Virus record (IMG/VR): IMGVR_UViG_3300006737_006138
Location: 1-21,218 of that record
DNA from: a virus
DNA length: 21,218 bases
Reading direction: 5' to 3' (one strand)
Part shown: positions 591-17,751 of the stretch, piece after piece
Numbering within the stretch: position 1 is the first letter of the stretch
Layout: every line of letters begins with the position of its first letter
The notes under the pieces: generated by a model
Seen by the model: the letters and a program-made list of their open reading frames with translations, nothing else
The model's database searches: none
What the model was told of the DNA's origin: nothing
Translations under genes and position numbers: made by a program

Positions 591-845
591 TTATCTTCCG
601 CTCTGTACTGATTCCTCAACATATACTTTGAAGTCATCAAAGCCACCAATGTGTAGGTTACCAACAAATATTTGTGGAACAGTAGTTGTTCCAGGAGGTA
701 CTTTTGAAAGTAACTCATCTCTGTGGTGTGGATGTGATTCAAGATTAAGTTCTTCGTATGGAAGACTCAATGAATCCATAAGTGCCTTTGCTGCATCACA
801 AAAGCCACATAGATCTCTGGTGTAAATAGTATATAGTGCCATCAT
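591..845 (-). CDS. Glutaredoxin
   Basis: An 84-residue protein with the thioredoxin fold signature of small glutaredoxins. The redox site CGFC is at residues 13-16 after a YTIYTRD strand, a TVPQIFVG segment carries the cis-proline, and a GGFDD motif follows, as in glutathione-binding glutaredoxins. It would reduce disulfides or mixed disulfides in the cytoplasm; phage glutaredoxins often serve ribonucleotide reductase. Here it lies downstream of an array of iron-sulfur enzymes, so help with thiol or cluster chemistry is possible but unproven. The start is the first of two adjacent ATGs, placed 5 bases after GAGG and directly after the stop of the upstream 39-residue gene. The length is normal for the family. 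Confidence 0.93.
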   Translation of the reverse strand: MMALYTIYTRDLCGFCDAAKALMDSLSLPYEELNLESHPHHRDELLSKVPPGTTTVPQIFVGNLHIGGFDDFKVYVEESVQSGR

Positions 846-965
846 TCATTCCTCATAGATAAATGGATCGTGTTTACGGATCTCTGCAAGTCTCTTTCTT
901 CTTTTGTATCTTATGTATGGATATGTTATCCAATCAATAAAACTATTCCAAATCTGGATAAGCAT
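846..965 (-). CDS. Small basic protein, 39 residues, function unknown
   Basis: A short reading frame with an ATG at 965, a well-placed GGAG seven bases upstream, and a TGA that directly abuts the glutaredoxin ATG. The start overlaps the end of the SGNH-like gene by 23 bases, the spacing style seen throughout this region. The protein begins with a hydrophobic and aromatic stretch (IWNSFIDWITYPYI), continues with a cluster of basic residues (RYKRRKRLAEIRK) and ends HDPFIYEE. It could be a membrane-associated amphipathic peptide, but no transmembrane helix of normal length is obvious. Without this gene about 97 bases of an otherwise gapless operon would be empty. Function unknown. Confidence 0.7.
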   Translation of the reverse strand: MLIQIWNSFIDWITYPYIRYKRRKRLAEIRKHDPFIYEE

Positions 966-1836
966 TAATTATCTCCGGGTAAATATGTTCTGCCCAATCT
1001 ATATGAGCTTGTTCTCCAAGATGCCAATATGTTTGGCTTTTTGGTGAATGACCTTTAACCTCAGTGCACCATCTATAGTAGTTGAAGTGTTTGTCCATAG
1101 GCTTGTAATAAAATTTTTCATCAATGTTGTAGTAAATCTTTTGATTGCCTACAAAAGGAGGGAACGTAATCTCTTGATGTGGCTTAGGAGGGTTTGATGT
1201 ATGTGTATCATAAAAGTTTTCTATTGCATTGAACATATAATATTTGTATGGAGATGTAATCATCATACCTTGTATGGCATAAATGTAGGATGCAAGTCTG
1301 TTAGCAGCAATTACATCATCTGCCCAAACATATGCCATATCAAATGCCTTACGTATCTCTTTGTCTTTAAGCATAAGTGGATTAGTACCAACAGTTGCTG
1401 GAATGTATTTGTTGTCTGCTCGTGCACCATAATCACCAGCTTGTTTCCACTCATTTTCATCTTCTTGTTTGTATCTCATATCGAGTCTATTCAGACTAGT
1501 CCATCCTATCAGAAAGAAGTAATTGTAGTCTTCTCTTATAGGAGCATAGTAACCATATCCAGTTTCTATATCATTCATTATTGTACAGAACTGATCAAAT
1601 ATTCTATGATTGCTACCACCACACTGTGCATAGTTTAAGTGTTGGTAGTTCCACTTCTCTGCTATCTTGGCACCGTAAGATAACTGTCTTTGCTCATCGC
1701 TATCACCAACACCTAGAGTCTCACTACCAGCTGTATGACTACAACCAAGAGATATAAGCACACCATTGTAACTATCATATCCCTTCCAACTAGATTTGTT
1801 AGCTTCGTATATGTGATCAAATTCTACTTCAGACAT
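943..1836 (-). CDS. SGNH/GDSL-hydrolase-like protein
   Basis: A 297-residue protein that fits a divergent SGNH hydrolase. A strand-turn block LISLGCSHTAG at residues 27-37 would place the nucleophile Ser33, a GGSN block at 73-76 matches the oxyanion-loop Gly/Asn region, and a C-terminal segment YWHLGEQAHIDWAEHI (270-285) resembles the block carrying the catalytic His. The Asp normally three residues before that His seems to be replaced by Thr269, so esterase activity is not certain. SGNH proteins add or remove acyl groups on sugars, lipids or peptides. The ATG overlaps the stop of the upstream radical SAM gene by eight bases (ATGTCTGA), implying translational coupling. Its place beside a carbamoyltransferase and a glycosyltransferase suggests glycan tailoring, an inference. 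Confidence 0.7.
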   Translation of the reverse strand: MSEVEFDHIYEANKSSWKGYDSYNGVLISLGCSHTAGSETLGVGDSDEQRQLSYGAKIAEKWNYQHLNYAQCGGSNHRIFDQFCTIMNDIETGYGYYAPIREDYNYFFLIGWTSLNRLDMRYKQEDENEWKQAGDYGARADNKYIPATVGTNPLMLKDKEIRKAFDMAYVWADDVIAANRLASYIYAIQGMMITSPYKYYMFNAIENFYDTHTSNPPKPHQEITFPPFVGNQKIYYNIDEKFYYKPMDKHFNYYRWCTEVKGHSPKSQTYWHLGEQAHIDWAEHIYPEIINAYPDLE

Positions 1837-3187
1837 ACTGACTCATCCATGGTAGGTAATCGCTTCCTTTTAATTTTCTAAATTTATCTGACGCTCTTTG
1901 CACATCTAAGAATTGATCCCACATATGAGGATCACGGTCTTCCATAATAATTTTTGCTAGGTTATTTAGGTTGTTAAGATTATCTTGTTCCCAATCATTT
2001 TCTATTGTACCCTTTACTCGATTATAAGTCAACTCTATTTGTTTAACTGCTTGGTGTTTCAACTCAATAGGTAGATGGCGGATATGGTAATACCTAGGAA
2101 AGTCAACAATATTGATATGAGGAAGTATGTTAATATAACCGTGAGGAGCCCTGGCTTCTCTATCGAAATAGTGAAATTTCTTATATTGATTCCTCGAAAA
2201 CTCATACACTTCGCCGATGTCTAAGATGTTAAGCATACTGACTGTAGTATGCAGTTGCACATTGATATGCTTAACCTCTTTACACCTTTGTCTTAGTTTG
2301 TCGAAGTTTTTTTCAATCACTGACCATTTACTAGGATGCCTTATATAGTATGCCTTATCACCCACTGCATCAACACTTATACCAAGATTTACATGCTCAA
2401 AGTGTGCCCAAAGATCAATCAATGCATTAGGTATCGTAGTTCCATTAGATGTGTACTGTAGTGTCTTATTCTTTGCCCATCCTTTGTTTATGATATGTTT
2501 CAACCACTCATAGTGTTCCTTTACAACCAATGGTTCTCCACCAAGAAAGTTTATTGTTCTTATTTGACCAAGTATAGGATCAAAGAATCTTTCTCTAAAT
2601 GCTTTTACATACCAAGGCTGTTCTCTACCTTGCTTTAAGTAAGGAATGTATTCTGGTTTGTGTTCTTGGTGAGGTATAACTTGCGCTTCTTCTATCCAGT
2701 TGTGACTACTCCATGGATTGCATGTCTTGCATTGTAGATTACACACATTACCAAGAGTTATATCTAAGTATGATATGTGTTCCATATTGATCATCACACC
2801 ATCTTTTTCTTGAATAGAATCTTCATGTATAAGATGTTTGTGAGTTTCATTTGCATCCATTCTATATGAGTATCCACCTTGGTCCTCAACATAAAAACAT
2901 CTTTCACATTCAGCAGGTCTTCTATTCTTCTTCAGTTTCTCTCTTAGATGACATAAAACAGGATCATTGAGAAGTTCTTTGACGTGTTTCATTGCTTGGA
3001 TCTGTGGTTGGAATCCAAACTTACCATTATCCATTTTGATTGGCCATGTATTGATATAGTCTAAGTCATGAGAGTTGATCACACCAGGAGCTCCTGATAT
3101 AGACTTAAAAGTTTTTGCAACACAACACGGTCTTACTCTACCAAAGTTGTTTATACTCAAACCGTTCATAGCATAATAACAATGCAT
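1829..3187 (-). CDS. Radical SAM protein with N-terminal twitch-like Cys domain (array member 6)
   Basis: A 452-residue radical SAM enzyme and the last of the tandem array. The cluster motif CNLQCKTC has Cys149, Cys153 and Cys156, followed by FLGGEPLV with the SAM-binding GGE at 216-218. In front of the core is the Cys-rich region seen in four other array members: Cys3, Cys21-Cys22 in VRPCCVA, and CERC at 94-97. These probably hold an auxiliary iron-sulfur cluster, as in proteins known as N-terminal twitch radical SAM proteins. Radical SAM enzymes use a 4Fe-4S cluster to cleave S-adenosylmethionine and start radical chemistry on a substrate; the substrate here is unknown. The ATG shares one base with the stop of the preceding gene (TAATG). 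It lacks the FC-x-LPW lead-in, starting directly at MHCYYAMNG. Confidence 0.88.
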   Translation of the reverse strand: MHCYYAMNGLSINNFGRVRPCCVAKTFKSISGAPGVINSHDLDYINTWPIKMDNGKFGFQPQIQAMKHVKELLNDPVLCHLREKLKKNRRPAECERCFYVEDQGGYSYRMDANETHKHLIHEDSIQEKDGVMINMEHISYLDITLGNVCNLQCKTCNPWSSHNWIEEAQVIPHQEHKPEYIPYLKQGREQPWYVKAFRERFFDPILGQIRTINFLGGEPLVVKEHYEWLKHIINKGWAKNKTLQYTSNGTTIPNALIDLWAHFEHVNLGISVDAVGDKAYYIRHPSKWSVIEKNFDKLRQRCKEVKHINVQLHTTVSMLNILDIGEVYEFSRNQYKKFHYFDREARAPHGYINILPHINIVDFPRYYHIRHLPIELKHQAVKQIELTYNRVKGTIENDWEQDNLNNLNNLAKIIMEDRDPHMWDQFLDVQRASDKFRKLKGSDYLPWMSQYV

Positions 3188-4149
3188 TATATTGGACCTT
3201 TTGCAATATTGAAATCAGCAGCACAATGGCAATGATGCTTTGGACAAATTATAGGTTTGATATTACTTGAGTCAAACTTGCCAGCTATATTACCTACTAT
3301 TGGTCCTACACCACAACTGGCTTGTCTTATTCTTCCATCTGGATATATGTGGAGACTGTCTTGTATATTACACTCCCAACCCTTCCAGAAGTTCCAACCA
3401 TTTTGCATTATCATATTTGATTCTATTGGCATTTCTTCACCATCAACAACCATATTTGCATAAGCATAATTTGGATCTTTGAATATAGTAAAATTGGTTG
3501 TCTTTACATCTGGATTAGATTTGAAAAACTCAATCTGATAGTCCTCATCATAATGATATTCTTCTGTGTCTGGTCTGAGAGAATCTAACACTGGCACATA
3601 GTCAATAATGTGGTTTGTACACTCTTTGAGTCTCTCTGTCATAGCAATACATTGGTCCCACTTATCTTTATGCATCATTACTCTGGCACACATATATGCT
3701 ATTCTTGTACATAACCAATTATAGTTCTCAAAGTATCTGTCATCTTTTGTAAATTCTGCATGATAGCTTGCTACTATGTCATCAAACAAAGTGTAGTTTT
3801 CTTGCCACCATTTCAGACCTCTTGATAGGTTTGTATTGATACCAACACAGCTTCCAGGGAACTCTACACGCTCTCTAAACAGTTCTATGGTTGGTATGAG
3901 TCCTGGCCATAGAGTAGGCTCACCACCACTTAGAAACAGTTTAAAGTAGCGATAACCACGATCCTGATACAGATCTATGATGTAGTCTAATGTTGTGAGG
4001 ATCTTATCAATATCATCCTCATGTTTAAACCTACCACCCCAGTTTCCTTCATTACAATATGTGCAACGAAAGTTACAAAAGTCGTTTACTTGCCAAACAA
4101 TACTCAACCATTTTTCTTTGGCAGGTACAATTTTAGTCAGGGTGGGCAT
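3187..4149 (-). CDS. Radical SAM protein with C-terminal auxiliary cysteines (array member 5)
   Basis: The shortest radical SAM enzyme of the array, 320 residues. The core motif CNFRCTYC (Cys25, Cys29, Cys32) lies close to the N-terminus after a KWLSIVWQVNDF strand, and SGGEPTL places GGE at 75-77. Unlike its neighbours it has no N-terminal Cys domain. Instead the last 65 residues hold Cys260, Cys279, Cys302, Cys307 and Cys309 around HIYPDGRIRQASCG, an arrangement like a C-terminal SPASM or twitch extension. It may therefore act on a different substrate or at a different step. The start overlaps the end of the preceding gene by 17 bases. The specific reaction is unknown. Confidence 0.88.
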   Translation of the reverse strand: MPTLTKIVPAKEKWLSIVWQVNDFCNFRCTYCNEGNWGGRFKHEDDIDKILTTLDYIIDLYQDRGYRYFKLFLSGGEPTLWPGLIPTIELFRERVEFPGSCVGINTNLSRGLKWWQENYTLFDDIVASYHAEFTKDDRYFENYNWLCTRIAYMCARVMMHKDKWDQCIAMTERLKECTNHIIDYVPVLDSLRPDTEEYHYDEDYQIEFFKSNPDVKTTNFTIFKDPNYAYANMVVDGEEMPIESNMIMQNGWNFWKGWECNIQDSLHIYPDGRIRQASCGVGPIVGNIAGKFDSSNIKPIICPKHHCHCAADFNIAKGPI

Positions 4150-5344
4150 GAGATATCACTTTAACCATATCTGGAAATACATCTTCAAATTTATACTTCC
4201 TATACTTATCAAGGAAGTGTATATACGTTCTCATTTTATTGATAAGCTCGCCTTTATACTTATCTGTATTTTTTGTATAGTTTATTATGTTGCGTATTGC
4301 ACCTTCATATTGTGTATCAAATGCTTGTAGTTTCTTTACTACGTCTATTCTCATTTCTTCTGGCCACACACAGCTGTGAATGTAATCTGGGCTTTCAAGA
4401 AAGATAGGAACAAAGTCTACTCTACGTTTTTGATTACGTTCTATCCATCTTATAACTTTTGTTACATCATATACATTCCATGCTTGATATACAAAGTATA
4501 CTTTTAGTATACACTTCTCAGTTAACTGCTGAGCCTTTGCAAAGTTCTTTTCTACTGATTTCCAATTGGTTGGATATCTTACATATGAGTTAGTCATTTC
4601 ATATCCATCAATACTCATCTGGATCTCTGACTCATCAAAGAATTCTAATTTGTCATAAAACTCATCTGGAAAATTAGTAAGATTGGTAGTCCAACAAACA
4701 TAACACTCATTGTTACCAACTTCTACTAACTTGTCTAGGATCTCTCTGTTTTTTTGGATGAGCGTTGGTTCTCCTCCCGTAAGATACAATCTTTTGAGAT
4801 TAGGCGCCACTCTATCAATGAATTTGTCAAACATTGGTGTATTGAACCAATCATAATCAAACTGATCAACACTGTCCAACTCATGTCGCCATACATTCTG
4901 TAACCATTGAGGAACCTTCTCATTATCAAGTATCCTTTTTCTTTCATTATATAATTGATCAGAACTTACAGCCCAGCATCCACTACACTTTAAGTTACAT
5001 ACATTACCAAGTCTTAGTTCAAGTAGATTTGGATCAAATACTGGATCTAAACTATCAGTGTGAAAGTTTTTGTTTGCCCATTGTCTTGAACTTTCCAATC
5101 CTTTCTCTTCATGCTCGTAGCATCTGTGGCATGCATCAATACGTTCACCTTGTAACATTGCCTTTCTAACATCTGTCATATACTTACCATGCCATATTTC
5201 ATCAAACTCTTGATGACCTAGAATAGCATACTTATCATCAATTGTTATATAATCTTCTGTATAGATGTTACAACATAGCTTACATCTACCATCAGTATTT
5301 GTATGAATATTTGTCCATGGATATATGCAAAATGTTTCAGCCAC
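4133..5344 (-). CDS. Radical SAM protein with N-terminal twitch-like Cys domain (array member 4)
   Basis: A radical SAM enzyme of 403 residues if it starts at the GTG at 5344, which I prefer: GGAAG lies five bases upstream, and the GTG overlaps the previous stop by eight bases (GTGGCTGA), as at other junctions here. An ATG at 5362 would add six residues but has no ribosome-binding site. Numbered from that longer start, the N-terminal Cys domain has Cys12 (FCIYPWTNIH), Cys27, Cys30-Cys31 and CHRC at 78-81. The radical SAM motif CNLKCSGC is at 122-129, and LTGGEPT gives GGE at 196-198. Cys27 is extra compared with the paralogues. Substrate unknown; the context places it in a multi-enzyme radical SAM pathway. 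Confidence 0.88.
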   Translation of the reverse strand: MAETFCIYPWTNIHTNTDGRCKLCCNIYTEDYITIDDKYAILGHQEFDEIWHGKYMTDVRKAMLQGERIDACHRCYEHEEKGLESSRQWANKNFHTDSLDPVFDPNLLELRLGNVCNLKCSGCWAVSSDQLYNERKRILDNEKVPQWLQNVWRHELDSVDQFDYDWFNTPMFDKFIDRVAPNLKRLYLTGGEPTLIQKNREILDKLVEVGNNECYVCWTTNLTNFPDEFYDKLEFFDESEIQMSIDGYEMTNSYVRYPTNWKSVEKNFAKAQQLTEKCILKVYFVYQAWNVYDVTKVIRWIERNQKRRVDFVPIFLESPDYIHSCVWPEEMRIDVVKKLQAFDTQYEGAIRNIINYTKNTDKYKGELINKMRTYIHFLDKYRKYKFEDVFPDMVKVISHAHPD

Positions 5345-6593
5345 GATTCTTCCAAAAATCATTTTTAAAATAATATTCTTTTAACTTGGCAAACTCAGAA
5401 TAAGTGTCAAAAAAGGATTCACCTCTCAGTTTATCTAACTGGATTACCTTATCAAAGAATACTGTCAAATGATGAGTCTTATCTTCTTCCCACATAAAAT
5501 GAATCAGACTTTCATAGTCACTAATAACTTTATCAACTCTGCTACCATATTGTCTAAGCTCTTTGATCCATTCAAGATACTTTTGTTCTACCATCTTTTT
5601 GCATTTTCTTGGTAGGCATTGTGTTCTATAAAACTCAGGATCTAACAACGGATTGATTCTAAAGTTCTCTGGTTCTAACAATCCTAGATCAACCCACTCT
5701 TTATGAAACTCAGCTACATTGAATACATTGAATATACTAACTGTAGGTGTTATCCAAAAGCTAACATTAGGACATTGTTCCATCATGTCTTTTCTATTTT
5801 GTACAACTCTATCCCACTTTAGATTCTTTCTAAGATACTCACCTCGTTCATGATTACCATCTAAACTAGCAGCCACCTCTACAGTATCAAATGAATTCCA
5901 ATATTCAAAGATAGTCTTCTTCTTAAATCTCATGTTAGTAAAGTTAGTAGTATAACTTAACTTAACATCAGTCATTTTGTGATGCAACCAATAGTCTAAT
6001 ACTCTATAATGTTCTTCTGTTATAATTGCTTCACCGCCTGCAAAGTATACTTTCTCCACATCAAGTAACATAGGTTCAAGTTCCTTGAAGAACGTATCCA
6101 TATCTTTACCAACTTTGAGTAGTTGAGGTATACCTGGATCACCATGCATCTTAACATGATCATCGTACCAACTTGTACTAAAGTTAGGTCCACAAGTACG
6201 ACATCTTAGATTACATAGGTTTGAGAAACGGATATCAAGGTATGCCATATTCACCATACCTGCACTTCCATCTGATTCTGTTTCTTCTACCTTCCACCAG
6301 TGATCAGCAAACTCTTTATTGCTGGACATTCTTAATGTTTGTATACCTGATTTTTCTTGCTCATAACATCTTCTACATTCAAGACTCTCTCTTCCTTCAA
6401 GCATATTATTTCTAATAGCTTTCATCTTATCATTGTTCCATAACTCTTGTATGGTATTATCATGAGAGCTTCCAATTGGCATTCTTGAATCTGCTAAACA
6501 ACAAGGATAGGTTTCACCATTGGGCCACATATGCAAATGAGTCCATGGCAACATACAAAATGTTTTGTTGTTGAGATAAGCCTCTTTAGTCAT
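5337..6593 (-). CDS. Radical SAM protein with N-terminal twitch-like Cys domain (array member 3)
   Basis: A 418-residue protein with the full array architecture. FCMLPWTHLH holds Cys13, YPCCLAD holds Cys31-Cys32, and CRRC is at 73-76; together these are likely ligands of an auxiliary iron-sulfur cluster. The radical SAM motif CNLRCRTC (Cys127, Cys131, Cys134) follows, with FAGGEAI placing GGE at 186-188. In the array consensus GGEPL the Pro is replaced by Ala here. The ATG overlaps the previous stop by eight bases (ATGACTAA) and has no ribosome-binding site of its own, so translation is probably coupled. Reaction and substrate are unknown; as a paralogue of its neighbours it may act on a related position of the same substrate. 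Confidence 0.9.
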   Translation of the reverse strand: MTKEAYLNNKTFCMLPWTHLHMWPNGETYPCCLADSRMPIGSSHDNTIQELWNNDKMKAIRNNMLEGRESLECRRCYEQEKSGIQTLRMSSNKEFADHWWKVEETESDGSAGMVNMAYLDIRFSNLCNLRCRTCGPNFSTSWYDDHVKMHGDPGIPQLLKVGKDMDTFFKELEPMLLDVEKVYFAGGEAIITEEHYRVLDYWLHHKMTDVKLSYTTNFTNMRFKKKTIFEYWNSFDTVEVAASLDGNHERGEYLRKNLKWDRVVQNRKDMMEQCPNVSFWITPTVSIFNVFNVAEFHKEWVDLGLLEPENFRINPLLDPEFYRTQCLPRKCKKMVEQKYLEWIKELRQYGSRVDKVISDYESLIHFMWEEDKTHHLTVFFDKVIQLDKLRGESFFDTYSEFAKLKEYYFKNDFWKNRG

Positions 6594-7800
6594 GTCGTAG
6601 ACACTGTTTGATAATGGGAATGTTCTCCGTCATCTCCTTGTATACATGTCTGAATCTTGAATGAAGATTGTGAACTAACTTGGATCGATCCCACGTATCC
6701 TTCTCCTTCATAAAAGATATGATTTGAGGGAATCCCCATCTGGGATGGGTCATCCGTCCAGAGTAGTTCTCTAGGTGTATTTCTAGGTATTGTTCAATCT
6801 CCCCTTTTATACTTCTTGGCATAGCTTGTATATTGAATTCTGGTGGGCTGAATGCTATATTGTACGACATTATACTTGTTTCGTCAACAATTCCTCTGTG
6901 TTCAAGATAGATATGAAACTTAGGAATATGATCAACATTCAGTATACTTATAACACTATCGATACCTAAGTTAATGTTGTCAATACCTTTGAGAGATAAT
7001 AAATTATCCTCAACTTGTTGCCACTTAGTACCAAGTCTTATCAGCTCTGCTCTTTCACCATATGCATCAATACTTGCTCCTACTTCAACCTTCTTAAACA
7101 TCTTCCACTTATCAACTACGTTGTATTTGTAGAAGTTAAGATTGCTCATATTGGTGTTGTATCTAAGAGTCATATCTGTTAGACCATGTTGTATTAGATA
7201 GTCAAGAATCTTATAATGTTCAGGCATCATTAATGGCTCACCACCAGTAAAATATATCTCATCAACAGTTGGTAAGTGTTCTTTGATCTGTTCCCATACA
7301 GACTCTTTTGAGTTGTCTTCTATTTTAAGGTTTGGACCTTTTGGTCCAATAATATATTTGTTCCAACCTGTGCTCCAAGAAGGACCACAAGTAAGACATG
7401 CAAAGTTACATTCTATACTAAACCTTATGTTTATAGACTTGAAATGAAACTCTTCTATACTACCATCTTCGTCTGTCAGATCTACAAGATTGTAATGCTT
7501 CTTGAATAGATTGTTGTTATGTTTTCTGTATGATGATCCTCCTGCATCATCAAACTGCCAACATCTTGTACAAGCATCATTTCTCTTGCCTTCCATCATA
7601 TCTTTTCTGAGCTTATTCCACTTATCAGAATGATATATTTCTGCTAATGTATTATCTTTGAGACTACCTTTTAGTTCTTCTATTCCTGGATATGGTACAG
7701 CCGTACAGCATGGAAACACATCACCGTTTGGTTCTGCGTACAGATGCATCCATGGAAGTATGCAAAAGTTTTCGTTATCAGATGGGTTCTTTATAGCCAC
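6586..7800 (-). CDS. Radical SAM protein with N-terminal twitch-like Cys domain (array member 2)
   Basis: A 404-residue protein starting at GTG (7800), with GGAG six bases upstream. Its N-terminal domain has Cys13 in FCILPWMHLYAEP, Cys31-Cys32 in FPCCTA, and CTRC at 77-80. The radical SAM core has CNFACLTC (Cys131, Cys135, Cys138) and FTGGEPLM with GGE at 186-188. By eye it is the closest paralogue of the adjacent gene at 7778-9139: both share FCILPW-HLYAEP-G-VFPCCTA, CLTC and FTGGEPLMMP, and a 37-base stretch is nearly identical in DNA. This suggests a fairly recent tandem duplication. It overlaps the upstream gene by 23 bases. Substrate unknown. Confidence 0.9.
   Translation of the reverse strand: MAIKNPSDNENFCILPWMHLYAEPNGDVFPCCTAVPYPGIEELKGSLKDNTLAEIYHSDKWNKLRKDMMEGKRNDACTRCWQFDDAGGSSYRKHNNNLFKKHYNLVDLTDEDGSIEEFHFKSINIRFSIECNFACLTCGPSWSTGWNKYIIGPKGPNLKIEDNSKESVWEQIKEHLPTVDEIYFTGGEPLMMPEHYKILDYLIQHGLTDMTLRYNTNMSNLNFYKYNVVDKWKMFKKVEVGASIDAYGERAELIRLGTKWQQVEDNLLSLKGIDNINLGIDSVISILNVDHIPKFHIYLEHRGIVDETSIMSYNIAFSPPEFNIQAMPRSIKGEIEQYLEIHLENYSGRMTHPRWGFPQIISFMKEKDTWDRSKLVHNLHSRFRHVYKEMTENIPIIKQCLRHD
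7223..7259. repeat. Near-identical 37-base duplicate between two radical SAM paralogues (copy 1; copy 2 at 8484-8520)
   Basis: This stretch matches 8484-8520 at 35 of 37 positions by direct comparison. It encodes the FTGGEPLMMP region of the two adjacent radical SAM genes. The match is longer than expected from protein similarity alone and suggests recent duplication or gene conversion between the neighbours. Confidence 0.75.
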
Positions 7801-9139
7801 CAGATTCTCCTATATCTTTGTTCCATCTATCAAATGGAGCATCACGTTCGTATATCATTTTCAACAATGGTATATGATCTAGTATTGCTTCTTTTGCAAA
7901 CGCTAGCGTGCTGTTTAAATGTTCAGAGAGCCTACCAGGCTTATATGTATCACGAGCATACATATAATCTATACACGTTTGCCAGTTTGCATTGATATAT
8001 CTGGCTTTGATTTTCATAGGCAACTTTTCCCATTCTGTTTTTAAGAATGTTTCTATAGTTGGTTTCATATCTGCAGGTATAGATGTGAGACTCAAAGGCT
8101 CAGGTTCATGAGCAATATTAGCAACCGTATTGGTATTGTACTTCAACAAGTCTTCATTATCAAAGTATGTTACCATTTTTGGTAAGTGGTATATGTTGAA
8201 GATACTGACAACTGTATCTATTGAATAACGTATATTATCATACTTTTTTATCTCTCTAATGTTAGCCATAACATCATTCCACTTTGTATTCCATCTTATA
8301 ATCTCTATATCTTTTTCAACTCCATCAATACTAAGTCCAAGATCAATCTCCTTGAACTTTGGCCAATAATCCATTGCATGTTGTTTACCAAATTTCAACT
8401 TACTCAAATTGGTATTGTATTGTAACTCTACTTTCTCTTCAAGATTATTATCAACCAGGTACTTGAGTATCTTCCAATGCACTGGCATCATTAATGGTTC
8501 ACCACCAGTAAAGTATATCTTTTCTATAGTGTGTAAATAAGGTTCCAATTCTTCCCATATAGGATACTTAGAGTTGTCATTAAGATCCAAAAGTTTTGTT
8601 CTAGTTGGATCTTTCCATAACCAAGGAGACTTATCATACCAAGAAGTACTCCATTGAGCATTACAAGTTAGACATGCCATGTTACAATGATTGCTGAATC
8701 TAACATTTAAGAACTTTAGATCAAGTTTTTTCAGACTTCCATCTTCATTTGTATTATCAATAGCATCTATAAACTGACCAAAGTGTCTTCTACCATAATG
8801 TCTATAGCTATCATTACCTACATCTTCAAACCTCTTACATCTTGTACAAGTACTTGGTAACTCTTCTCCATTCAACATTTCTAGTCTAAGTTTGTTGAAG
8901 TTTGGAGTGTTCAAAGCCTCTAATATAGACTTGTCTTTTATATTAGATTGCGCAAAGTAAGGATCAGTCCTAGTCCCAGGCTCGCCCATTTCACCATCCC
9001 ATAAAGGTGTTGCTGTACAACATGGAAACACTGTTCCATCTGGTTCTGCATATAAGTGAACCCATGGCAATATGCAAAAGCTCTTACGTTCATTTAAGAG
9101 TTCTTCTTTTTGCTTTGGGCTTCTGATAACGACTGACAT
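7778..9139 (-). CDS. Radical SAM protein with N-terminal twitch-like Cys domain (array member 1b)
   Basis: A 453-residue protein with the array architecture: Cys22 in FCILPWVHLYAEP, Cys40-Cys41 in FPCCTA, CTRC at 98-101, the radical SAM motif CNMACLTC (Cys152, Cys156, Cys159) and FTGGEPLM with GGE at 212-214. The start ATG lies inside the end of the upstream gene (46-base overlap), with GGAG 11 bases before it, a rather long spacing. It carries an insertion after the CC pair (around residues 46-66) relative to its nearest paralogue at 6586-7800. A role in radical-based modification is secure at the family level; the substrate is not known. Confidence 0.9.
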   Translation of the reverse strand: MSVVIRSPKQKEELLNERKSFCILPWVHLYAEPDGTVFPCCTATPLWDGEMGEPGTRTDPYFAQSNIKDKSILEALNTPNFNKLRLEMLNGEELPSTCTRCKRFEDVGNDSYRHYGRRHFGQFIDAIDNTNEDGSLKKLDLKFLNVRFSNHCNMACLTCNAQWSTSWYDKSPWLWKDPTRTKLLDLNDNSKYPIWEELEPYLHTIEKIYFTGGEPLMMPVHWKILKYLVDNNLEEKVELQYNTNLSKLKFGKQHAMDYWPKFKEIDLGLSIDGVEKDIEIIRWNTKWNDVMANIREIKKYDNIRYSIDTVVSIFNIYHLPKMVTYFDNEDLLKYNTNTVANIAHEPEPLSLTSIPADMKPTIETFLKTEWEKLPMKIKARYINANWQTCIDYMYARDTYKPGRLSEHLNSTLAFAKEAILDHIPLLKMIYERDAPFDRWNKDIGESGGYKEPI

Positions 9140-10497
9140 TGATCCATGAACTCCTTCATTTCAGGGAACGTGTTGTAAAAATTTGTATTCCGTCTTCTGT
9201 CAAGTTCATTAAACCAATTGTAAAAATCAATACGACCTTCTAATACTCTTTCATTGGAATAGTTTGTTAGTTGCATGTAATCAACAACTCTCTTAAACTT
9301 CCAGTACTCAAGGTCACTAAACTTTTTAGGATCGCCTTCTTTAACATTATCTTTCATAAATTGTAAAGAGTCATTCATATAATGCATAAACTGATTCTTG
9401 GGTAACAGGTTCATATCATACTGTAATGGTTCTTTTAGATATGGTGTATCAAAACGAACACGATGTAGTTGTCCTGCCCCATTTGTCACATCAGGGTACT
9501 GTTCTCTCCACTCTAATATTTTCTTTAACAAACTCTTGAATGTGGTGACGGTCAATATGTTAAACGTCATCATAAATGTAATGTTGGCATTGGTCTCCGT
9601 TAGATATGTATGAAAATTTTCTTCCCATACTTTTAGATCAAGACCAGTTCTTATATACTCAGCTCTTGAGCCCCACGTATCTAGTGAAGTGAATAGTTTG
9701 AATCTTTTGATCTTATTTTCATCTTCAAACTCTCTTACAAACTTGGATAATCTCTTGACTATTCTATTGGTCATACCAAGATTACTATTTGTATTGATCT
9801 CAAGATCTGGTAGTGGATATTTAGAAATGTTTTCAAACAACTTCCAAGTACTTTGCTGAAGTAATGGCTCGCCACCAGTTATCCTCAATATACTAAGAGT
9901 CTTTCTTACCTCAGGCCACCACTCCCACCAAGCATCAACATATGGGTTATCTTCTTCTCGTTTGAATAGTTTGATCCAATCAATATCCAATCTATGGTTT
10001 TCAACCATATCATATGGACCAAACTTCTCTATCTCTTTCCAGTAACTACTACTTGCTTTTGGATGACAGTATCCACATTTGAACTGACATTCATTACCAA
10101 AACTTATCTCAATGTACTCTGGATTTATATGATGATCGTAGCCATGTTTGACTATTTCATCTACTCTCTCATCTCTATGGATAGATGCATTACGTTCATG
10201 TCGATCGCTGACATATTCTTTACCTAGAGATTCAACATTCCAGCAATACTGACAGCCCTTAGGTTTTTTACCTTCGAGCATCAATTTACGTTCTTGTTTC
10301 TTTTGTTCAGTGTTATGTAGAGCTGAAGCATCCCGCTCAAGTTCTTTAAGCGGGATGTGATGTGGTGGTGGATGATAACAACTGTGAGTCTCACCAGTTT
10401 GTAGATATATTGTTACGTGATGAAACTTAGCCAAACAAAATGTTGGACTAACTTGATCAGCTAACTTATCTCTGATAAGTCCAATACGTTCATCCAT
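9094..10497 (-). CDS. Divergent radical SAM protein, first of the tandem array
   Basis: A 467-residue radical SAM enzyme: CQFKCGYC has Cys137, Cys141 and Cys144, and ITGGEPLL places GGE at 208-210. The N-terminal Cys region is present but altered: Cys21 (FCLAKFHH), a single Cys40 followed by Tyr where the paralogues have two Cys, then a His- and Pro-rich HPPPHH stretch, and CQYC at 82-85. The auxiliary cluster may thus have a different ligand set, perhaps including His, or be lost. A segment rich in Trp and acidic residues near 185-197 is also unlike the paralogues. The ATG overlaps the carbamoyltransferase stop by eight bases (ATGGATGA). It probably acts early or on a different group of the substrate; this is inference. 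Confidence 0.88.
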   Translation of the reverse strand: MDERIGLIRDKLADQVSPTFCLAKFHHVTIYLQTGETHSCYHPPPHHIPLKELERDASALHNTEQKKQERKLMLEGKKPKGCQYCWNVESLGKEYVSDRHERNASIHRDERVDEIVKHGYDHHINPEYIEISFGNECQFKCGYCHPKASSSYWKEIEKFGPYDMVENHRLDIDWIKLFKREEDNPYVDAWWEWWPEVRKTLSILRITGGEPLLQQSTWKLFENISKYPLPDLEINTNSNLGMTNRIVKRLSKFVREFEDENKIKRFKLFTSLDTWGSRAEYIRTGLDLKVWEENFHTYLTETNANITFMMTFNILTVTTFKSLLKKILEWREQYPDVTNGAGQLHRVRFDTPYLKEPLQYDMNLLPKNQFMHYMNDSLQFMKDNVKEGDPKKFSDLEYWKFKRVVDYMQLTNYSNERVLEGRIDFYNWFNELDRRRNTNFYNTFPEMKEFMDQCQSLSEAQSKKKNS

Positions 10498-11911
10498 TGC
10501 AAACTACTTCTACTCCATATTCGTCTGCAAATGCTTTTGCATCAGCACTATCATTGACCATAGGTTGACCCTTGATGTTTAAACTTGTGTTCAATAATGT
10601 AGGACACCCAGTTCTTTCATACCATACTTCAAGTATGTGTCTCAATGGTGAATGAGACCAAGTAGACCTGTCTACAGTATGTACTCTAGCAGAACCATCC
10701 TCATGCATAGTAGCTAGAAACGACTTATCTCTTGCTTTCACTACATTCTGCATATAGCTGTAGTCATGTTGTCTGAATGTTCTAAAATAATTATCAGCAT
10801 GTTCAGATAATATAGATGGAGCAAACGGCCTGAACTTTTGACGTTTCTTTATATCATTAACTCTATCTTTATTCTCTGCTGTTCTTGGATCACATAACAA
10901 ACTTCTATTACCTAGAGCTCTAGGTCCAAATTCTGCTTTGCCTGCTGCAACACCAACTGGCTCCCCTTTCTCTAACACATCAACAACATGTTGTATTTGA
11001 TCGAGCTTCAACATTTTTAATTCATAACCAAGAAATGAATGAGGATAATTTATCTTCTTTCTATGGACCAATGCAGCTGCACCTAATGAAGAACCAGCAT
11101 CACCAGGATTAGGAAACACATAGTGTTGCTTGTTTCTCAATACCAATCCATTTGCAACACTGTTAAGAGCAACACCTCCTCCATATACCATAGGAAGGTT
11201 AGGATCTAATTTGTTTACAAATGTTTTTAGTATATTCTCTACCAGCTTTTGTGCATTGAATGCTATATCAACATCATCATATTGTGATAGAAGACCATTC
11301 ATTCCTCTGTGAAGATTCTTCTTCAACATTAGCTGTCTGAGTTCTTCATACAGTACTTTATTAAATTTACCATATGCTGCCATGCCCATAGTAATGTATT
11401 CATCCTCCATAGGCTTGAGACCTACTCTAGCTGTCACAGCAGAATAGAACAAACCTATAGAAGTGGGATACCTCATAGATTTTATCTTTTTGTATACGGC
11501 TTTCTCATTGATATATTCACAATACCATACACTAACAGTATCCCACTCACCTATAGCATCTACTACAAGCGCATTTGCATTACTGAATCCAGAACATTGG
11601 AATGCGGCAGCAGCATGAGATAAATGATGATTAAAGCAATGATCGTACTTATAGTTAAGATGACGTGCTTTAAAAGCTGACTTCCATTGCCCCGCATACG
11701 CTTGACGGGTCCGTTTGATAAATGGCCGTTCGTAGAAAGCAATTGTATCAGCATTGTACTTTTCGACATAATCTTTCAACTCCTGACAAACGTATTTGTC
11801 ATTCTTCACTTTGGAGAACCTTTCACTGTGACCAGCAAAAAGTATCTCGCTTCCATCTAAAACAGTTACAGCGGCATCATGAAATCCTTCACTGAAGCCT
11901 AGGACTCTCAT
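10490..11911 (-). CDS. NodU/CmcH/TobZ-family carbamoyltransferase
   Basis: A 473-residue protein with the hallmarks of O-carbamoyltransferases, which use carbamoyl phosphate and ATP, through carbamoyl-AMP, to carbamoylate a hydroxyl. Visible motifs are the N-terminal GFSEGFHDAA strand, HHLSHA at 95-100 (metal site), VVDAIGEWDT at 117-126, DEYITMGMAAYG at 170-181, GGGVALNSVANG at 244-255, PGDAGSSLGAA at 269-279, EFGPRALGNRS at 327-337, RPFAPSIL at 361-368 and a C-terminal LLNTSLNIKGQPMV. It is somewhat shorter than common members of about 550-600 residues, but all blocks are present. Typical acceptors are sugars or antibiotic scaffolds. It starts with ATGA overlapping the upstream stop and leads directly into six radical SAM genes, so its acceptor may be their product or precursor. 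Confidence 0.92.
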   Translation of the reverse strand: MRVLGFSEGFHDAAVTVLDGSEILFAGHSERFSKVKNDKYVCQELKDYVEKYNADTIAFYERPFIKRTRQAYAGQWKSAFKARHLNYKYDHCFNHHLSHAAAAFQCSGFSNANALVVDAIGEWDTVSVWYCEYINEKAVYKKIKSMRYPTSIGLFYSAVTARVGLKPMEDEYITMGMAAYGKFNKVLYEELRQLMLKKNLHRGMNGLLSQYDDVDIAFNAQKLVENILKTFVNKLDPNLPMVYGGGVALNSVANGLVLRNKQHYVFPNPGDAGSSLGAAALVHRKKINYPHSFLGYELKMLKLDQIQHVVDVLEKGEPVGVAAGKAEFGPRALGNRSLLCDPRTAENKDRVNDIKKRQKFRPFAPSILSEHADNYFRTFRQHDYSYMQNVVKARDKSFLATMHEDGSARVHTVDRSTWSHSPLRHILEVWYERTGCPTLLNTSLNIKGQPMVNDSADAKAFADEYGVEVVCNG

Positions 11912-12162
11912 GCCGCATCTGCTTCTTGTACCTCGCCTTCGCCATCAACGTCTGCATTAGGATCTCTAGCACCAGTAAGTGTTGCTAGAATAACGACAAT
12001 CAAAGGATCTCGTTCTTTCTTCAACCAAACATTTAGATAGTTTTGCTCAAACTCATCGAGCTCAATACCATCACAGTTATATCTGATTGTTGTATCAATC
12101 ATTGCAGCCATCTTAAATAGCTTCTGATCGATATGACTCATATCTGTATCGTCTTTTGCCAT
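11908..12162 (-). CDS. Small acidic protein of unknown function
   Basis: An 84-residue protein not assignable to a family. I chose the second of two adjacent ATGs (12162) because AAGGAG lies six bases upstream; an upstream ATG at 12183 has no such site. The sequence has a helical N-terminal half (MSHIDQKLFKMAAMIDTTIR), a single Cys, a hydrophobic LIVVILATLTG stretch too short to be a clear membrane span, and a strongly acidic tail (DPNADVDGEGEVQEADAA). It is the first gene after the promoter at 12194-12222 and overlaps the carbamoyltransferase by four bases (ATGA). It could be an accessory or carrier-like protein for the downstream enzymes, or an unrelated phage gene. Confidence 0.75.
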   Translation of the reverse strand: MAKDDTDMSHIDQKLFKMAAMIDTTIRYNCDGIELDEFEQNYLNVWLKKERDPLIVVILATLTGARDPNADVDGEGEVQEADAA

Positions 12163-12193
12163 CATATACTCCTTATCAAGCAATTATAATTGT

Positions 12194-12222: not shown

Positions 12223-12876
12223 CTAATTTGTACTGGGATCTACCATATTGTTTTCTGTGAAGCCCCATTGTCTTTCCGTACACTGCCAGCAATGTATTGT
12301 TTCTGTTTGTAGGTAACATCTGCCTTCATCAAACTCTGTACACGTATGAGAGGCTTCAAATAACCACTCTATGTCAAGTCTCCTTACCATATCAATAGTT
12401 TCAGCTTTGTTCAATTCAATAAATGGTATCTCAAACTTGTCATACTTTTCCACTGCTTTGTTAGCTACTGACCTATCTGGGGCTGCTGTAGTTGACATAA
12501 GAGGCTGAGGAGGATTAGAAGTATTGCCGCTGTACAATACATCCAAGCCGTCGATGTAGTCATCAAGTATGTGTCTAAAAGCAGTTTTACCTGTAATACC
12601 CAGTGAAGCAATCTCATTTTCCTTCCCGCCTTTGACTGTGTGTTGTTCCCATTTGTTTCTCAAGTTGCTCTTTTGTATGATATCTGCAGAGTACTTTAGA
12701 CTGCCATCAGGCTTGTCCATTGTAAAGATTACAAAAGTGCAATCGTCGCAAGCAATATCAAGCAAGTTAAGTAAAAGCCCCGAGTCCATACCCCCTGATA
12801 AGAGTATTCCAACCCTCTGTTTTTTCCTATAGGGTATTTGAATAGTATTGTCATTCGATGATTGGAGTATCAACAA
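12223..12876 (-). CDS. QueC/ExsB-like PP-loop ATP pyrophosphatase
   Basis: A 217-residue protein, close to QueC in length. The PP-loop SGGMDS is at residues 27-32 after an RVGILL strand. The C-terminus has Cys179 (SHTC), Cys187, Cys196 and Cys199 (HCWQCTERQWGF), spaced like the zinc site of QueC. QueC turns 7-carboxy-7-deazaguanine into preQ0 using ATP and ammonia. The middle, however, has SGNTSNPPQPLMSTTAAPDRS where QueC normally has a conserved YPDCR-type segment, so the substrate may differ and I give no gene symbol. No QueD, QueE or FolE is in the window. The start is TTG, with GGGAG nine bases upstream, inside the end of the preceding PP-loop gene (26-base overlap). Confidence 0.8.
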   Translation of the reverse strand: MLILQSSNDNTIQIPYRKKQRVGILLSGGMDSGLLLNLLDIACDDCTFVIFTMDKPDGSLKYSADIIQKSNLRNKWEQHTVKGGKENEIASLGITGKTAFRHILDDYIDGLDVLYSGNTSNPPQPLMSTTAAPDRSVANKAVEKYDKFEIPFIELNKAETIDMVRRLDIEWLFEASHTCTEFDEGRCYLQTETIHCWQCTERQWGFTENNMVDPSTN

Positions 12877-13810
12877 CTATTTCATCTCCCAGCCTGCACC
12901 ATTCTCTACTGAACTTCATAACCGTAGTTCCCTTTTCAATACGTTCAAAAAACTCTTCCATCTCAACACCAATAAATGACCTTTGAGGATAACAATCATA
13001 TAAGTGCCTCGTATCATTTATATCATATTGATATATACCTCTTGTTCTATCATATACTAGATCTGAAAAATATGGAAACCTGTCGTTGTTAAGTTTCTGC
13101 TTGATCTTGTCAGCTACTTCTGGAAAGTGGTGTTCAAAGAATGTATGTTTATACCAGTATTCCCACTTACCTGTTTCCAACTCTCTTACTTGTTGTTTGT
13201 ATAGATCATCAAACAATGCATAACACACTGATGGATTATCATAGAACACACCAGTGTAATCATACTCTCTGAATCCAATTGTCTTCCATAGATTAGATGG
13301 AGCAAATGACCATCTCTTGTCTTCTCTCCAACCAAATTTGTATATGTTGTATGGTGATGAACAACTAACTAAGAATACTTCATTAGGATCAAACTTATTG
13401 TCTAGATCACACTGAATAGATGAGTGTACACTAGTTGGAAACTCTTTTACAAATCTATCTTGAAAGTATTTTGACTTCTGATACTTCTTTACATCTATAT
13501 CTACAAACTCTGTCTCTGGTGGAACTATACCAGCTTCTTGCCAGTTTAGATAAGCACCATCTAGTAGATATCTTTGATGCATGACTCTGTGTGGGATTTC
13601 GAGATAATCGAAACCCCACTTTACTAATTGTGAGTCTGCTCCACCACTAAAGCAAATTACTAACTCTTTTGTGGTCTTGCTGGCAATGTCAATTAACGTC
13701 TCGAGAAAAGCATCCCTGAACGATAGCTCGTTTTCAGTAAAGGTAAATTCAAGCTCAACGTGGTCAGGAAATATTTCAGGTTTGATCCCACCTTGCTGTT
13801 CTGATGACAT
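12851..13810 (-). CDS. PP-loop ATPase of the asparagine-synthetase/N-type superfamily
   Basis: A 319-residue protein. The one sure signature is the PP-loop CFSGGADSQLV (SGGADS at 55-60) after an ELVI strand, the nucleotide-binding loop of N-type ATP pyrophosphatases, which adenylate a substrate and often then amidate or thiolate it. The rest is not recognised: a segment rich in aromatic residues (YNIYKFGWREDKRWSFAPS), several scattered Cys and a YQYDINDTRHLYDCYP stretch. No glutaminase domain is present, so it is not a full asparagine synthetase. The ATG at 13810 has GAGG nine bases upstream and follows a late promoter and a long leader. With the next gene it forms a pair of PP-loop enzymes, perhaps successive activation or amidation steps. 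Confidence 0.8.
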   Translation of the reverse strand: MSSEQQGGIKPEIFPDHVELEFTFTENELSFRDAFLETLIDIASKTTKELVICFSGGADSQLVKWGFDYLEIPHRVMHQRYLLDGAYLNWQEAGIVPPETEFVDIDVKKYQKSKYFQDRFVKEFPTSVHSSIQCDLDNKFDPNEVFLVSCSSPYNIYKFGWREDKRWSFAPSNLWKTIGFREYDYTGVFYDNPSVCYALFDDLYKQQVRELETGKWEYWYKHTFFEHHFPEVADKIKQKLNNDRFPYFSDLVYDRTRGIYQYDINDTRHLYDCYPQRSFIGVEMEEFFERIEKGTTVMKFSREWCRLGDEIVVDTPIIE

Positions 13811-17153: not shown

Positions 17154-17166
17154 TCTTATCTCCAAA

Positions 17167-17232
<66 letters not shown>

Positions 17233-17242
<10 letters not shown>

Positions 17243-17751
17243 ATAAACCATGCTGGAGGCATAGTATATTTGTATCTGGCAAACTTAGACTTCTCAAGAT
17301 TGTAACAAGTCCTGTATGCCTCAACAGTATCTTCAATATGTTTGAAGTTAGTGTTGGCATTAACAAACGGTGTCCTTTTCACTGCAGGCAAATCAGTGTA
17401 CTTCAATTGAGCTTCATAGATCATTGGAGTACCACCATACTTATGCATTTTTTTATACCGCCTCGTATACTCAAGAAGCATTTCTCTATGATGTGCTATC
17501 AACCACTTAACATTGTTGATAGATTCCATCAGCCACAAAGTACAAGGGTGCTTCCTAACAGACTTTGGATAGTTAGCCAACCCGAGAGTAACGTGAGGAT
17601 CCCCACCATCACCACGATGCTTATCAGAATAAGTAACATCCAACACTGCTGAAAGCATTTGACAATTTTCAATAAGCATCTTGACAACATGCTGATCACA
17701 TAATGACCTAGCTGCTACTCTTGGATCTTTGTCCACTACGAAAATGTTCAT
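17233..17751 (-). CDS. Unrecognised MNIFVVDKDP protein overlapping the tRNA
   Basis: A 172-residue soluble-looking protein that begins MNIFVVDKDPRVAARSLCDQ and continues HVVKMLIENCQMLSAVLD. The pattern DxDP, CDQHVVKM and later PCTLWLMESINNVKWL with an HHREML helix looks like a conserved all-alpha fold, but I cannot name the family with confidence. The ATG at 17751 lies 44 bases inside the end of the upstream oxygenase-like gene, with only a weak ribosome-binding site. The TAG stop at 17233-17235 lies inside the tRNA-Thr gene, so tRNA 5' processing would cut the mRNA within the last codons. A nucleic-acid repair role is conceivable but unsupported. Confidence 0.8.

What the first reader, a model, noticed from the sequence alone, without database searches (positions are those of the whole stretch)
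1829..10497. Six radical SAM genes in an unbroken tandem array on a phage-like genome
All six reading frames carry CX3CX2C and GGE motifs, and all are joined by overlaps. Five share an N-terminal Cys domain (FC...CC...CxxC) of the N-twitch type. Such a paralogue array with no interruption implies either stepwise modification of one repetitive substrate or several related reactions on one scaffold. Together with the carbamoyltransferase, PP-loop, 2OG-oxygenase and B12-type radical SAM genes it would be a full biosynthetic island inside a phage. I know of no described function for such a set.
Basis: partly seen in the sequence, partly recalled or inferred. Interest (0 to 1): 0.88.

Follow-up and report, generated by a model that had tools for sequence, protein, structure and literature searches.

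The report
Ordered phage array of radical enzymes
A phage genome fragment carries seven radical-chemistry enzyme genes in one unbroken run, and other, more distant uncultured phages keep related genes in the same order, often near sugar-attaching genes, so they probably act together to build or tailor an unusual sugar or protein coat.

Summary
The array is real and larger than reported: seven, not six, overlapping radical SAM genes on the minus strand at 1829-10497. Six belong to NCBIfam NF033640 (N-terminal-twitch radical SAM; 297-394 bits, cut-off 170); the seventh (3187-4149) is a short radical SAM protein. They are not a recent duplication. In a tree of 246 N-twitch proteins they fall into separate groups (A, B/C, D, E, F), and the order A-D-E-short-F recurs in other phages (A before D in 29 of 31 loci; E-short-F contiguous in 13 of 14). 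Cluster cysteines are nearly invariant; dN/dS is 0.035-0.128. Three records hold the same seven genes; another, 49-84% identical, keeps almost the whole island. T4-like phages with many radical SAM genes, and radical SAM cassettes in pelagimyophage host-recognition clusters, are in print; the ordered set and its function I did not find in print. Frequent neighbours are carbohydrate genes: glycosyltransferase-like in 39 of 59 loci, O-carbamoyltransferase in 12, StrB1-like amidinotransferase in 11. I favour stepwise radical tailoring of a glycan (0.42) over protein or small-molecule modification. No substrate is shown, and the window's own lineage lacks the neighbouring tail-fibre/GT8 block seen elsewhere.

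The parts
9094..10497 (-). N-twitch radical SAM protein, group A (467 aa), first gene of the array
   Evidence: NF033640 306 bits; in a clade with members from 45 loci, support 0.90; Y/H in place of the second Cys of the CC pair in 61 of 63 members
7778..9139 (-). N-twitch radical SAM protein, group B (453 aa)
   Evidence: NF033640 338 bits; sister of group C, orthologue in L027
6586..7800 (-). N-twitch radical SAM protein, group C (404 aa, GTG start)
   Evidence: NF033640 350 bits; orthologue in L027
5337..6593 (-). N-twitch radical SAM protein, group D (418 aa)
   Evidence: NF033640 394 bits; clade with members from 49 loci but support only 0.48; AlphaFold2 model pLDDT 92.5
4133..5362 (-). 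N-twitch radical SAM protein, group E (409 aa)
   Evidence: NF033640 297 bits; clade with members from 24 loci, support 0.85; D is directly followed by E in 15 of 16 viral loci holding both
3187..4149 (-). short radical SAM protein without N-twitch (320 aa), family f2
   Evidence: PF04055 30.9 bits, NF033640 only 23 bits; family in 25 of 59 viral loci; contiguous E-f2-F in 13 of 14 loci holding E and F
1829..3187 (-). N-twitch radical SAM protein, group F (452 aa), last gene of the array
   Evidence: NF033640 302 bits; clade with members from 31 loci, support 0.71
943..1836 (-). SGNH-hydrolase-like protein, family f7, overlaps F by 8 nt
   Evidence: GCS block, GxxN and C-terminal H among invariant columns; the SGNH reading is by motif from recall; DUF6071 hit below cut-off; f7 plus four clusters judged similar by eye in 33 of 59 loci
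591..845 (-). glutaredoxin
   Evidence: PF00462 61.8 bits
3..584 (-). glycosyltransferase, cut by the record end
   Evidence: phrog_2170 glycosyltransferase 1.4e-12; full-length orthologue in G003 hits PF00534 Glycos_transf_1 2.8e-11
10490..11911 (-). NodU/TobZ-type O-carbamoyltransferase, overlaps A by 8 nt
   Evidence: PF16861 and PF02543; novobiocin carbamoyltransferase, GdmN and TobZ in PDB, E 2.7e-43 to 3.9e-30; family in 12 of 59 loci
11908..12183 (-). small acidic protein (91 aa)
   Evidence: orthologue in L027, 68% over 74 aa; no Pfam family
12223..12876 (-). PP-loop ATPase, QueC-like at its C-terminus
   Evidence: PF06508 31.2 bits; NCBIfam QueC 21.7 bits against cut-off 150
12851..13810 (-). 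second PP-loop-like protein (SGGADS motif)
   Evidence: motif read by eye; no hit in NCBIfam, Pfam or PHROGs
13981..14829 (-). PhyH-type 2-oxoglutarate/Fe(II) oxygenase
   Evidence: PF05721 83.5 bits
14836..16407 (-). B12-type radical SAM protein
   Evidence: PF04055 57.6 bits, B12-binding 15.4 bits below cut-off; nearest NCBIfam PhpK P-methyltransferase 75.8 bits against cut-off 600; family f6 in 19 of 59 loci

Best explanation
The array encodes a set of different, non-redundant N-twitch radical SAM enzymes plus one short radical SAM partner, probably co-translated. They carry out successive C-H activation steps (oxidation, epimerisation or deoxygenation) on one glycan or nucleotide-sugar scaffold, and the neighbouring carbamoyltransferase, 2OG oxygenase, B12 radical SAM protein, SGNH-like protein and glycosyltransferase decorate and attach it. 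In many relatives the set sits next to tail-fibre genes and GT8-like glycosyltransferases, so the product most likely ends up on tail fibres or on the infected host's surface. Shown: the array, the family, the ordered conservation, intact cluster ligands, purifying selection, carbohydrate neighbours. Inferred: that the substrate is a glycan, that the steps are sequential, and where the product ends up.
For: Order A-D-E-short-F recurs in viral loci (A before D 29 of 31, A before F 22 of 22, E before F 14 of 14, E-short-F contiguous 13 of 14). Seven cluster Cys are kept in all or all but one of 246 proteins, the six of the window included. dN/dS between window and G002 is 0.035-0.128 for all seven genes. 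The N-twitch aligns with the C-terminal twitch of BtrN, E 3.1e-5; that BtrN is an aminocyclitol dehydrogenase is recalled. Neighbours: f0 in 39 and f3 in 29 of 59 viral loci. f3 matches glycogenin, 1.7e-6. The f0 model (pLDDT 84.6) matches mainly glycosyltransferases and some nucleotidyltransferases: Foldseek lists WrtF and a PBCV-1 capsid-glycosylation enzyme; VIA-align gives B4GALNT1 Z 10.7, 3.1 A over 141 residues, for residues 2-175 only. Carbamoyltransferase in 12 of 59; f14 in 11 of 59, one member matching StrB1 inosamine-phosphate amidinotransferase over its full length at 3.5e-18; f12, UDP-glucose dehydrogenase, in 12 of 59. f0/f1/f3 genes lie nearer N-twitch genes than random ORFs in G022, G040 and G045 (p<0.001). 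The window lineage has a GT1 glycosyltransferase two genes after the array's SGNH-like gene. A Halobacteriovorax locus has N-twitch genes near an epimerase, a carbamoyltransferase and a GT1. PMC7029224 (passages) places glycosyltransferases, mostly GT8 in these phages, and radical SAM cassettes in pelagimyophage host-recognition clusters.
Against: No substrate or product is known. Twitch domains also occur in peptide maturases, and the best Foldseek matches of the D model are peptide-modifying (SkfB, a sactipeptide enzyme, anSME, SuiB) as well as GDGT-MAS and viperin. In VIA-align anSME (Z 12.2, 4.0 A over 225), BlsE (12.0, 4.0 A, 221), SkfB (11.5, 4.2 A, 227) and DesII (11.2, 3.8 A, 232) are practically tied (substrates of BlsE and DesII recalled). 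In G003, the window's own lineage, no f0, f1, f3, f5 or f8 gene was found on the 128-kb fragment. In G011 the glycosyltransferase clustering is not significant (p=0.06); the two such genes of G045 are both of the unidentified family f1, which is also half of those in G022; the fibre test was significant only in G040, of four records with such genes. Neighbour families were defined from array-flanking DNA, so the test is biased towards them. f1 is heterogeneous and unconfirmed; without it 39, not 50, of 59 loci have a glycosyltransferase-like neighbour. 13 of 59 loci had none of f0, f3, f11, f12, f14, f15, and 6 of these none even with f1 counted. f5 is called a fibre only by its place beside f8: it had no family hit.
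Confidence: 0.42

Rival explanations
1. The enzymes modify a phage protein (tail fibre or another virion protein) post-translationally, RiPP-fashion, one enzyme per residue type or step.
For: Best Foldseek matches of the D model include SkfB, a sactipeptide enzyme, anSME and SuiB. Families f5/f8 lie in 24 of 59 loci; f8 matches tail-fibre PHROGs. f4, a small protein of about 110 aa, follows the f5/f8 genes and is in 27 of 59 loci.
Against: No precursor-like small protein is common to all arrays; f4 is absent from the window and from loci such as L084 and L091 that hold D-E-F. No PqqD/RRE-type hit in the Pfam scans of 20 of 23 window proteins (three not scanned). Glycosyltransferase-like neighbours (39 of 59) are commoner than f5/f8 (24 of 59).
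Confidence: 0.25
2. The island makes a free small molecule (aminocyclitol- or nucleoside-like cofactor, inhibitor or defence compound) that acts in the infected cell or against competitors.
For: The carbamoyltransferase matches novobiocin carbamoyltransferase, GdmN and TobZ; f14 members match StrB1, SxtG and HsvA; structural matches to BlsE and DesII. 2OG oxygenase and B12 radical SAM genes are close by.
Against: No transporter or resistance gene was recognised in the family scans of the window. Glycosyltransferase-like and fibre genes beside many arrays point to a polymer or virion target. f14 is in only 11 of 59 loci and not in the window.
Confidence: 0.2
3. The set belongs to a 7-deazaguanine/queuosine-type nucleic-acid modification made by the phage.
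For: QueE- and QueD-like genes in G003 and a QueC-like PP-loop gene in the window; a QueD-family gene lies near an N-twitch gene in Halobacteriovorax locus L106.
Against: QueE and QueD lie about 90 kb from the array in G003. The QueC-like protein scores 21.7 bits against a cut-off of 150. The arrays mapped are flanked by other families, though a dedicated Que search of those loci was not made.
Confidence: 0.06
4. Auxiliary metabolic genes that simply supplement host metabolism, with no joint product.
For: Fe-S assembly genes co-occur in some records (A-type carrier over cut-off in 9 of 35, PF01883 in 5 of 35, G001-G003 among both). Campylobacter phage radical SAM genes were read as improving host fitness (PMC2853527, passages).
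Against: The conserved order, overlaps and separate groups point to one joint process. Most of the 35 records lack the Fe-S genes, though they may be fragments.
Confidence: 0.07

Closest known systems
NCBIfam NF033640, N_Twi_rSAM
   Same: Six of the seven proteins are members well above the curated cut-off.
   Different: A sequence subfamily without a stated reaction in the model's name. What is added here is a fixed multi-gene array of separate groups.
Radical SAM cassettes in the host-recognition cluster of pelagimyophages (PMC7029224; passages read)
   Same: Radical SAM cassettes, tail fibres, GT8 glycosyltransferases and UDP-glucose 6-dehydrogenase in T4-like phages; a similar setting was found here in G022, G040 and G011.
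   Different: In the window lineage (G003) the f3, f5 and f8 families were not found beside the array. The passages do not describe the composition or order of the cassettes.
T4-like environmental viral genome TARA_ERS488813_N000010 (PMC5332604; section 14 read)
   Same: 12 radical SAM genes with an A-type carrier, glutaredoxin and paaD; G003 has an A-type carrier and a PF01883/PaaD-type gene and an orthologue of the window's glutaredoxin.
   Different: Sequence identity with that genome was not tested; the section gives no array order or function.
Radical SAM clusters of Campylobacter phages CP220/CPt10 (PMC2853527; passages read)
   Same: 11 and 12 radical SAM proteins, clusters each with a putative glycine amidinotransferase, and a central module of five radical SAM genes called interchangeable.
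   Different: Models from another Campylobacter phage, F379, match the D model only weakly (E 1e-4), so probably another subfamily; CP220 itself was not compared.
BtrN (twitch radical SAM enzyme)
   Same: Twitch domain related in sequence to the N-twitch (E 3.1e-5).
   Different: Twitch lies C-terminal in BtrN and N-terminal here; these proteins are longer (404-467 aa against 269-270 in the solved chains).

Membership tests
NF033640 N_Twi_rSAM | whole-protein score over the curated cut-off of 170 bits | tested here: met
   six proteins 297-394 bits; 3187-4149 only 23 bits, so not a member
Radical SAM superfamily | CX3CX2C (and GGE) motifs | tested here: met
   7 of 7 ORFs; the three Cys and GGE kept in 246 of 246 aligned N-twitch proteins
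SPASM/twitch auxiliary-cluster domain | four conserved Cys for an auxiliary cluster | tested here: met
   four N-terminal Cys invariant in all six; BtrN twitch match. Cluster binding itself is not testable here
Prokaryotic viperin (NF038283) | score over the curated cut-off of 180 bits | tested here: not met
   19.9-44.8 bits for the seven proteins
RiPP maturase system | adjacent precursor peptide or RRE/PqqD domain | tested here: inconclusive
   no PqqD-type hit among 20 of 23 window proteins scanned with Pfam; small precursors can escape these methods
Pelagimyophage host-recognition cluster | tail fibres and GT8 glycosyltransferases beside the radical SAM genes | tested here: inconclusive
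   families f3, f5 and f8 not found in G003, a fragment, and other fibre families were not sought; found in G022, G040 and G011
QueC (TIGR00364), for 12223-12876 | score over the curated cut-off of 150.3 bits | tested here: not met
   21.7 bits
T4-like myovirus (relative G003) | T4-type clamp loader, tail sheath, head closure and baseplate hub | tested here: met
   phrog_168, 23, 218 and 150 at E 1.2e-52 to 3.8e-123; that these are T4 hallmarks is recalled

The most novel reading that the evidence does not exclude
The array is a phage-encoded radical-enzyme assembly line: five to seven dedicated radical SAM enzymes, in fixed gene order, convert one sugar or aminocyclitol unit stepwise into a so far undescribed, highly tailored (dehydrogenated, carbamoylated, in some phages guanidinylated) residue. 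Glycosyltransferases then place it on tail fibres or on the host surface, where it decides who can infect whom.
Probability: 0.2. Interest if true: 0.87.

Novelty: new variant of a known kind. Interest (0 to 1): 0.62.

Why it matters
Phages with many radical SAM genes have been noted in print since 2010 (PMC2853527), but the papers searched here give them no tested function. An ordered set of groups kept across diverged phages turns a gene count into a pathway that can be tested gene by gene. If the product is a new glycan or virion modification, it would bear on how aquatic phages recognise hosts or exclude competitors, and would add radical chemistry to phage coat biosynthesis.

Tried and rejected
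Recent tandem duplication: rejected; only B and C are sisters (clade of the two with their L027 counterparts, support 0.994), while A, D, E and F each group with proteins of other phages. Viperin-type antiviral enzyme: rejected, 19.9-44.8 bits against cut-off 180. Repetitive substrate in the window: no support; three tandem repeats of 20-27 bases. Double N-twitch fusion in phages: one search listed an 889-aa open frame over two matches in G025 and G026, but a TAA separates the two genes in L058, the G026 locus; ORFs with two full units were found only in bacterial loci L105 and L109 among the ORFs over 600 aa that I scanned. Fe-S assembly genes as a constant partner: not supported (9 of 35 and 5 of 35 records over cut-off), though records may be fragments.

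Led nowhere: searching with the six-protein alignment; PDB sequence search for f0 and f1; Pfam and PHROGs for f0, f1, f4, f5, f9; host of the single-cell virus AG-345-D19 (no paper). Structural matches of the radical SAM core do not separate sugar from peptide enzymes. Match rows beyond the listed cuts (for example) were not seen.

Searches used 35 of 53 viral handles. For counts of 59 loci I took the window and L027-L102 less 18 that looked like duplicates, chosen by eye from coordinates and scores. The tree used 246 of 380 hits (score over 140, 300-600 aa, not in dropped loci). Groups are the largest midpoint-rooted clades holding a single window paralogue, so they may lump; D has support 0.48. 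Neighbour families are single-linkage BLAST clusters and some (f0, f1) are mixed; each was identified from one member or one small alignment.


Full report
What is there. The stretch 1829-10497 on the minus strand holds seven radical SAM ORFs in a row, each overlapping the next by 1-46 nt, and the last overlapping a carbamoyltransferase gene by 8 nt. Six match NCBIfam NF033640 at 297-394 bits (cut-off 170); the seventh, 3187-4149, scores 23 bits there and is a short radical SAM protein. All six long proteins share four N-terminal cysteines plus the three of CX3CX2C. Residue shuffling gives 0.0005 proteins with both motifs per trial, against 7 observed.

Where it lies. The window is a 21,218-bp IMG/VR record. 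Three other records, of 50, 44 and 128 kb, carry the same seven genes in the same order. The array proteins of G003 are 91-99% identical to the window's and 84-98% to those of G002. G003 has T4-like clamp-loader, tail-sheath, head-closure, baseplate-hub and QueE/QueD-like genes, an A-type Fe-S carrier and a PF01883/PaaD-type gene. That mix resembles the T4-like TARA_ERS488813_N000010 of PMC5332604 (section 14 read: 12 radical SAM genes, A-type carrier, cas4, grx, paaD); identity with it was not tested.

A second, diverged copy of the island. Locus L027 keeps nearly the whole neighbourhood in the same order at 49-84% identity, from the B12 radical SAM gene through the PP-loop, carbamoyltransferase, A-B-C-D-E-short-F, SGNH-like and glutaredoxin genes to the glycosyltransferase; no match to the PhyH gene was listed there.

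How widespread. A scan of viral contigs with an alignment of B and C gave 419 stretches encoding relatives, of which 79 loci were returned. Of these I examined 50 records; 50 of 50 have an NF033640 match over the cut-off and 2-18 matches at E<=1e-10. They were picked because they hold a relative, so this is no measure of prevalence. A scan of genome contigs gave 12 bacterial loci, 8 of 12 with titles that I place, from recall, in Bdellovibrionota; 11 of the 12 genomes have matches over the cut-off, 2-12 each at E<=1e-20. In the phage collection, queries B and D found Vibrio phages at about 22-26% identity and one single-cell marine virus fragment.

Groups in order. A FastTree of 246 N-twitch proteins from viral and bacterial loci, the window's six included, puts A, D, E and F in separate clades with members from 45, 49, 24 and 31 loci (supports 0.90, 0.48, 0.85, 0.71); B and C pair only with L027. 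In viral loci A precedes D in 29 of 31 loci holding both, A precedes F in 22 of 22, D precedes F in 26 of 28, E precedes F in 14 of 14, D is directly followed by E in 15 of 16, and E-short-F is contiguous in 13 of 14. Not every phage has every group; several loci have A and D with other N-twitch genes and no E. Across 59 viral loci 125 of 176 neighbouring N-twitch pairs are within 60 nt and 111 overlap. Seven cluster cysteines are kept in all or all but one of the 246 proteins; the second Cys of the CC pair, an eighth, is Tyr or His in 61 of 63 group A proteins. dN/dS between window and G002 is 0.035-0.128 for the seven genes. So the paralogues are distinct, all apparently functional, and kept together.

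What the proteins look like. The D model is confident (pLDDT 92.5). The N-twitch matches the C-terminal twitch of BtrN by profile (E 3.1e-5), so the domain appears to sit at the other end of the protein. Foldseek ranks SkfB, a sactipeptide enzyme, GDGT-MAS, viperin and anSME first. VIA-align gives anSME Z 12.2 (4.0 A over 225 residues), BlsE 12.0 (4.0 A, 221), SkfB 11.5 (4.2 A, 227), MoaA 11.2 (4.5 A, 225) and DesII 11.2 (3.8 A, 232), practically tied. The fold therefore does not decide between peptide and sugar substrates. Among predicted viral proteins the best match is an uncultured Caudovirales phage protein (E 4e-39).

Neighbours. Among 59 viral loci: f0 in 39, f3 in 29, f2 (the short radical SAM) in 25, SGNH-like clusters in 33, f5/f8 in 24, B12 radical SAM in 19, carbamoyltransferase in 12, amidinotransferase f14 in 11, UDP-glucose dehydrogenase f12 in 12. 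f3 matches glycogenin, f0 folds like glycosyltransferases, one f14 member matches StrB1 over its full length (3.5e-18), f8 matches tail-fibre PHROGs while f5 has no family hit, and the window carbamoyltransferase matches novobiocin carbamoyltransferase, GdmN and TobZ. f1 (32 of 59) remains unidentified. In G022, G040 and G011 the array follows a block f8 - f5 - f4 - f3 - f3 - f0. f0/f1/f3 genes are closer to N-twitch genes than random ORFs in G022, G040 and G045 (p<0.001; both such genes of G045 are f1) but not significantly in G011 (p=0.06), and G003 has none; for f5/f8 only G040 is significant. The test uses families found near arrays and is biased towards them. PMC7029224 (passages) reports a similar setting: a host-recognition cluster with tail fibres and glycosyltransferases, GT8 the commonest family in these phages, in which two genomes differ by radical SAM cassettes; its authors think of O-chain modification.

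Best reading. Order, overlap and non-redundancy favour a single multi-step process. Carbohydrate neighbours in phages, and in a Halobacteriovorax locus (epimerase, carbamoyltransferase, GT1), favour a glycan as scaffold. I put this at 0.42. Protein modification (0.25) and a free small molecule (0.20) stay open, because no substrate has been seen and the radical SAM fold is shared by all three.

Prior print. Campylobacter phages CP220 and CPt10 carry 11 and 12 radical SAM proteins, with clusters that each appear to include a putative amidinotransferase (PMC2853527, passages); PMC3322345 (passages) notes radical SAM in a related phage. PMC7150976 (passages) reports radical SAM genes as prevalent in Tasman Sea phage samples. 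Together with PMC5332604 and PMC7029224 this makes radical SAM-rich T4-like phages known. Searches, judged from listings and from passages or sections of seven papers, showed no description of the ordered N-twitch array or its function; the library holds open-licence papers only.

Noticed in passing
window 17167-17242 (-): A tRNA-Thr (TGT) gene between the 16395-17177 ORF and a pyrimidine-dimer-glycosylase-like gene.
   Followed up: no
window 12851-13810 (-): A second PP-loop-like protein with no family hit; a remote relative (25%) is encoded in G003 at 97363-98403, not far from the tail-sheath gene.
   Followed up: no
G003 40397-40747 and 2857-3198: Phage-encoded A-type Fe-S carrier and PF01883/PaaD-type protein in the same lineage, which could help to load many Fe-S enzymes.
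   Followed up: partly
L105:3480-6800 and L109:13465-16095: Bacterial single ORFs with two N-twitch radical SAM units fused head to tail, a hint that paralogues work together.
   Followed up: partly
27 viral loci, e.g. L028:3381-3737: Family f4, about 110 aa with an NGG motif seen by eye, after f5/f8 genes and before glycogenin-like glycosyltransferases; one member scanned had no Pfam or PHROGs family.
   Followed up: no
L116 (marine virus AG-345-D19, single-cell origin): An 8-kb fragment with amidinotransferase-like, two SGNH-like (one by eye), carbamoyltransferase and N-twitch genes; knowing the sorted cell would give a host.
   Followed up: partly
window 18509-18964 and 17233-17751 (-): SprT-like metalloprotease (below Pfam cut-off) and a pyrimidine dimer glycosylase domain protein next to the island.
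   Followed up: no
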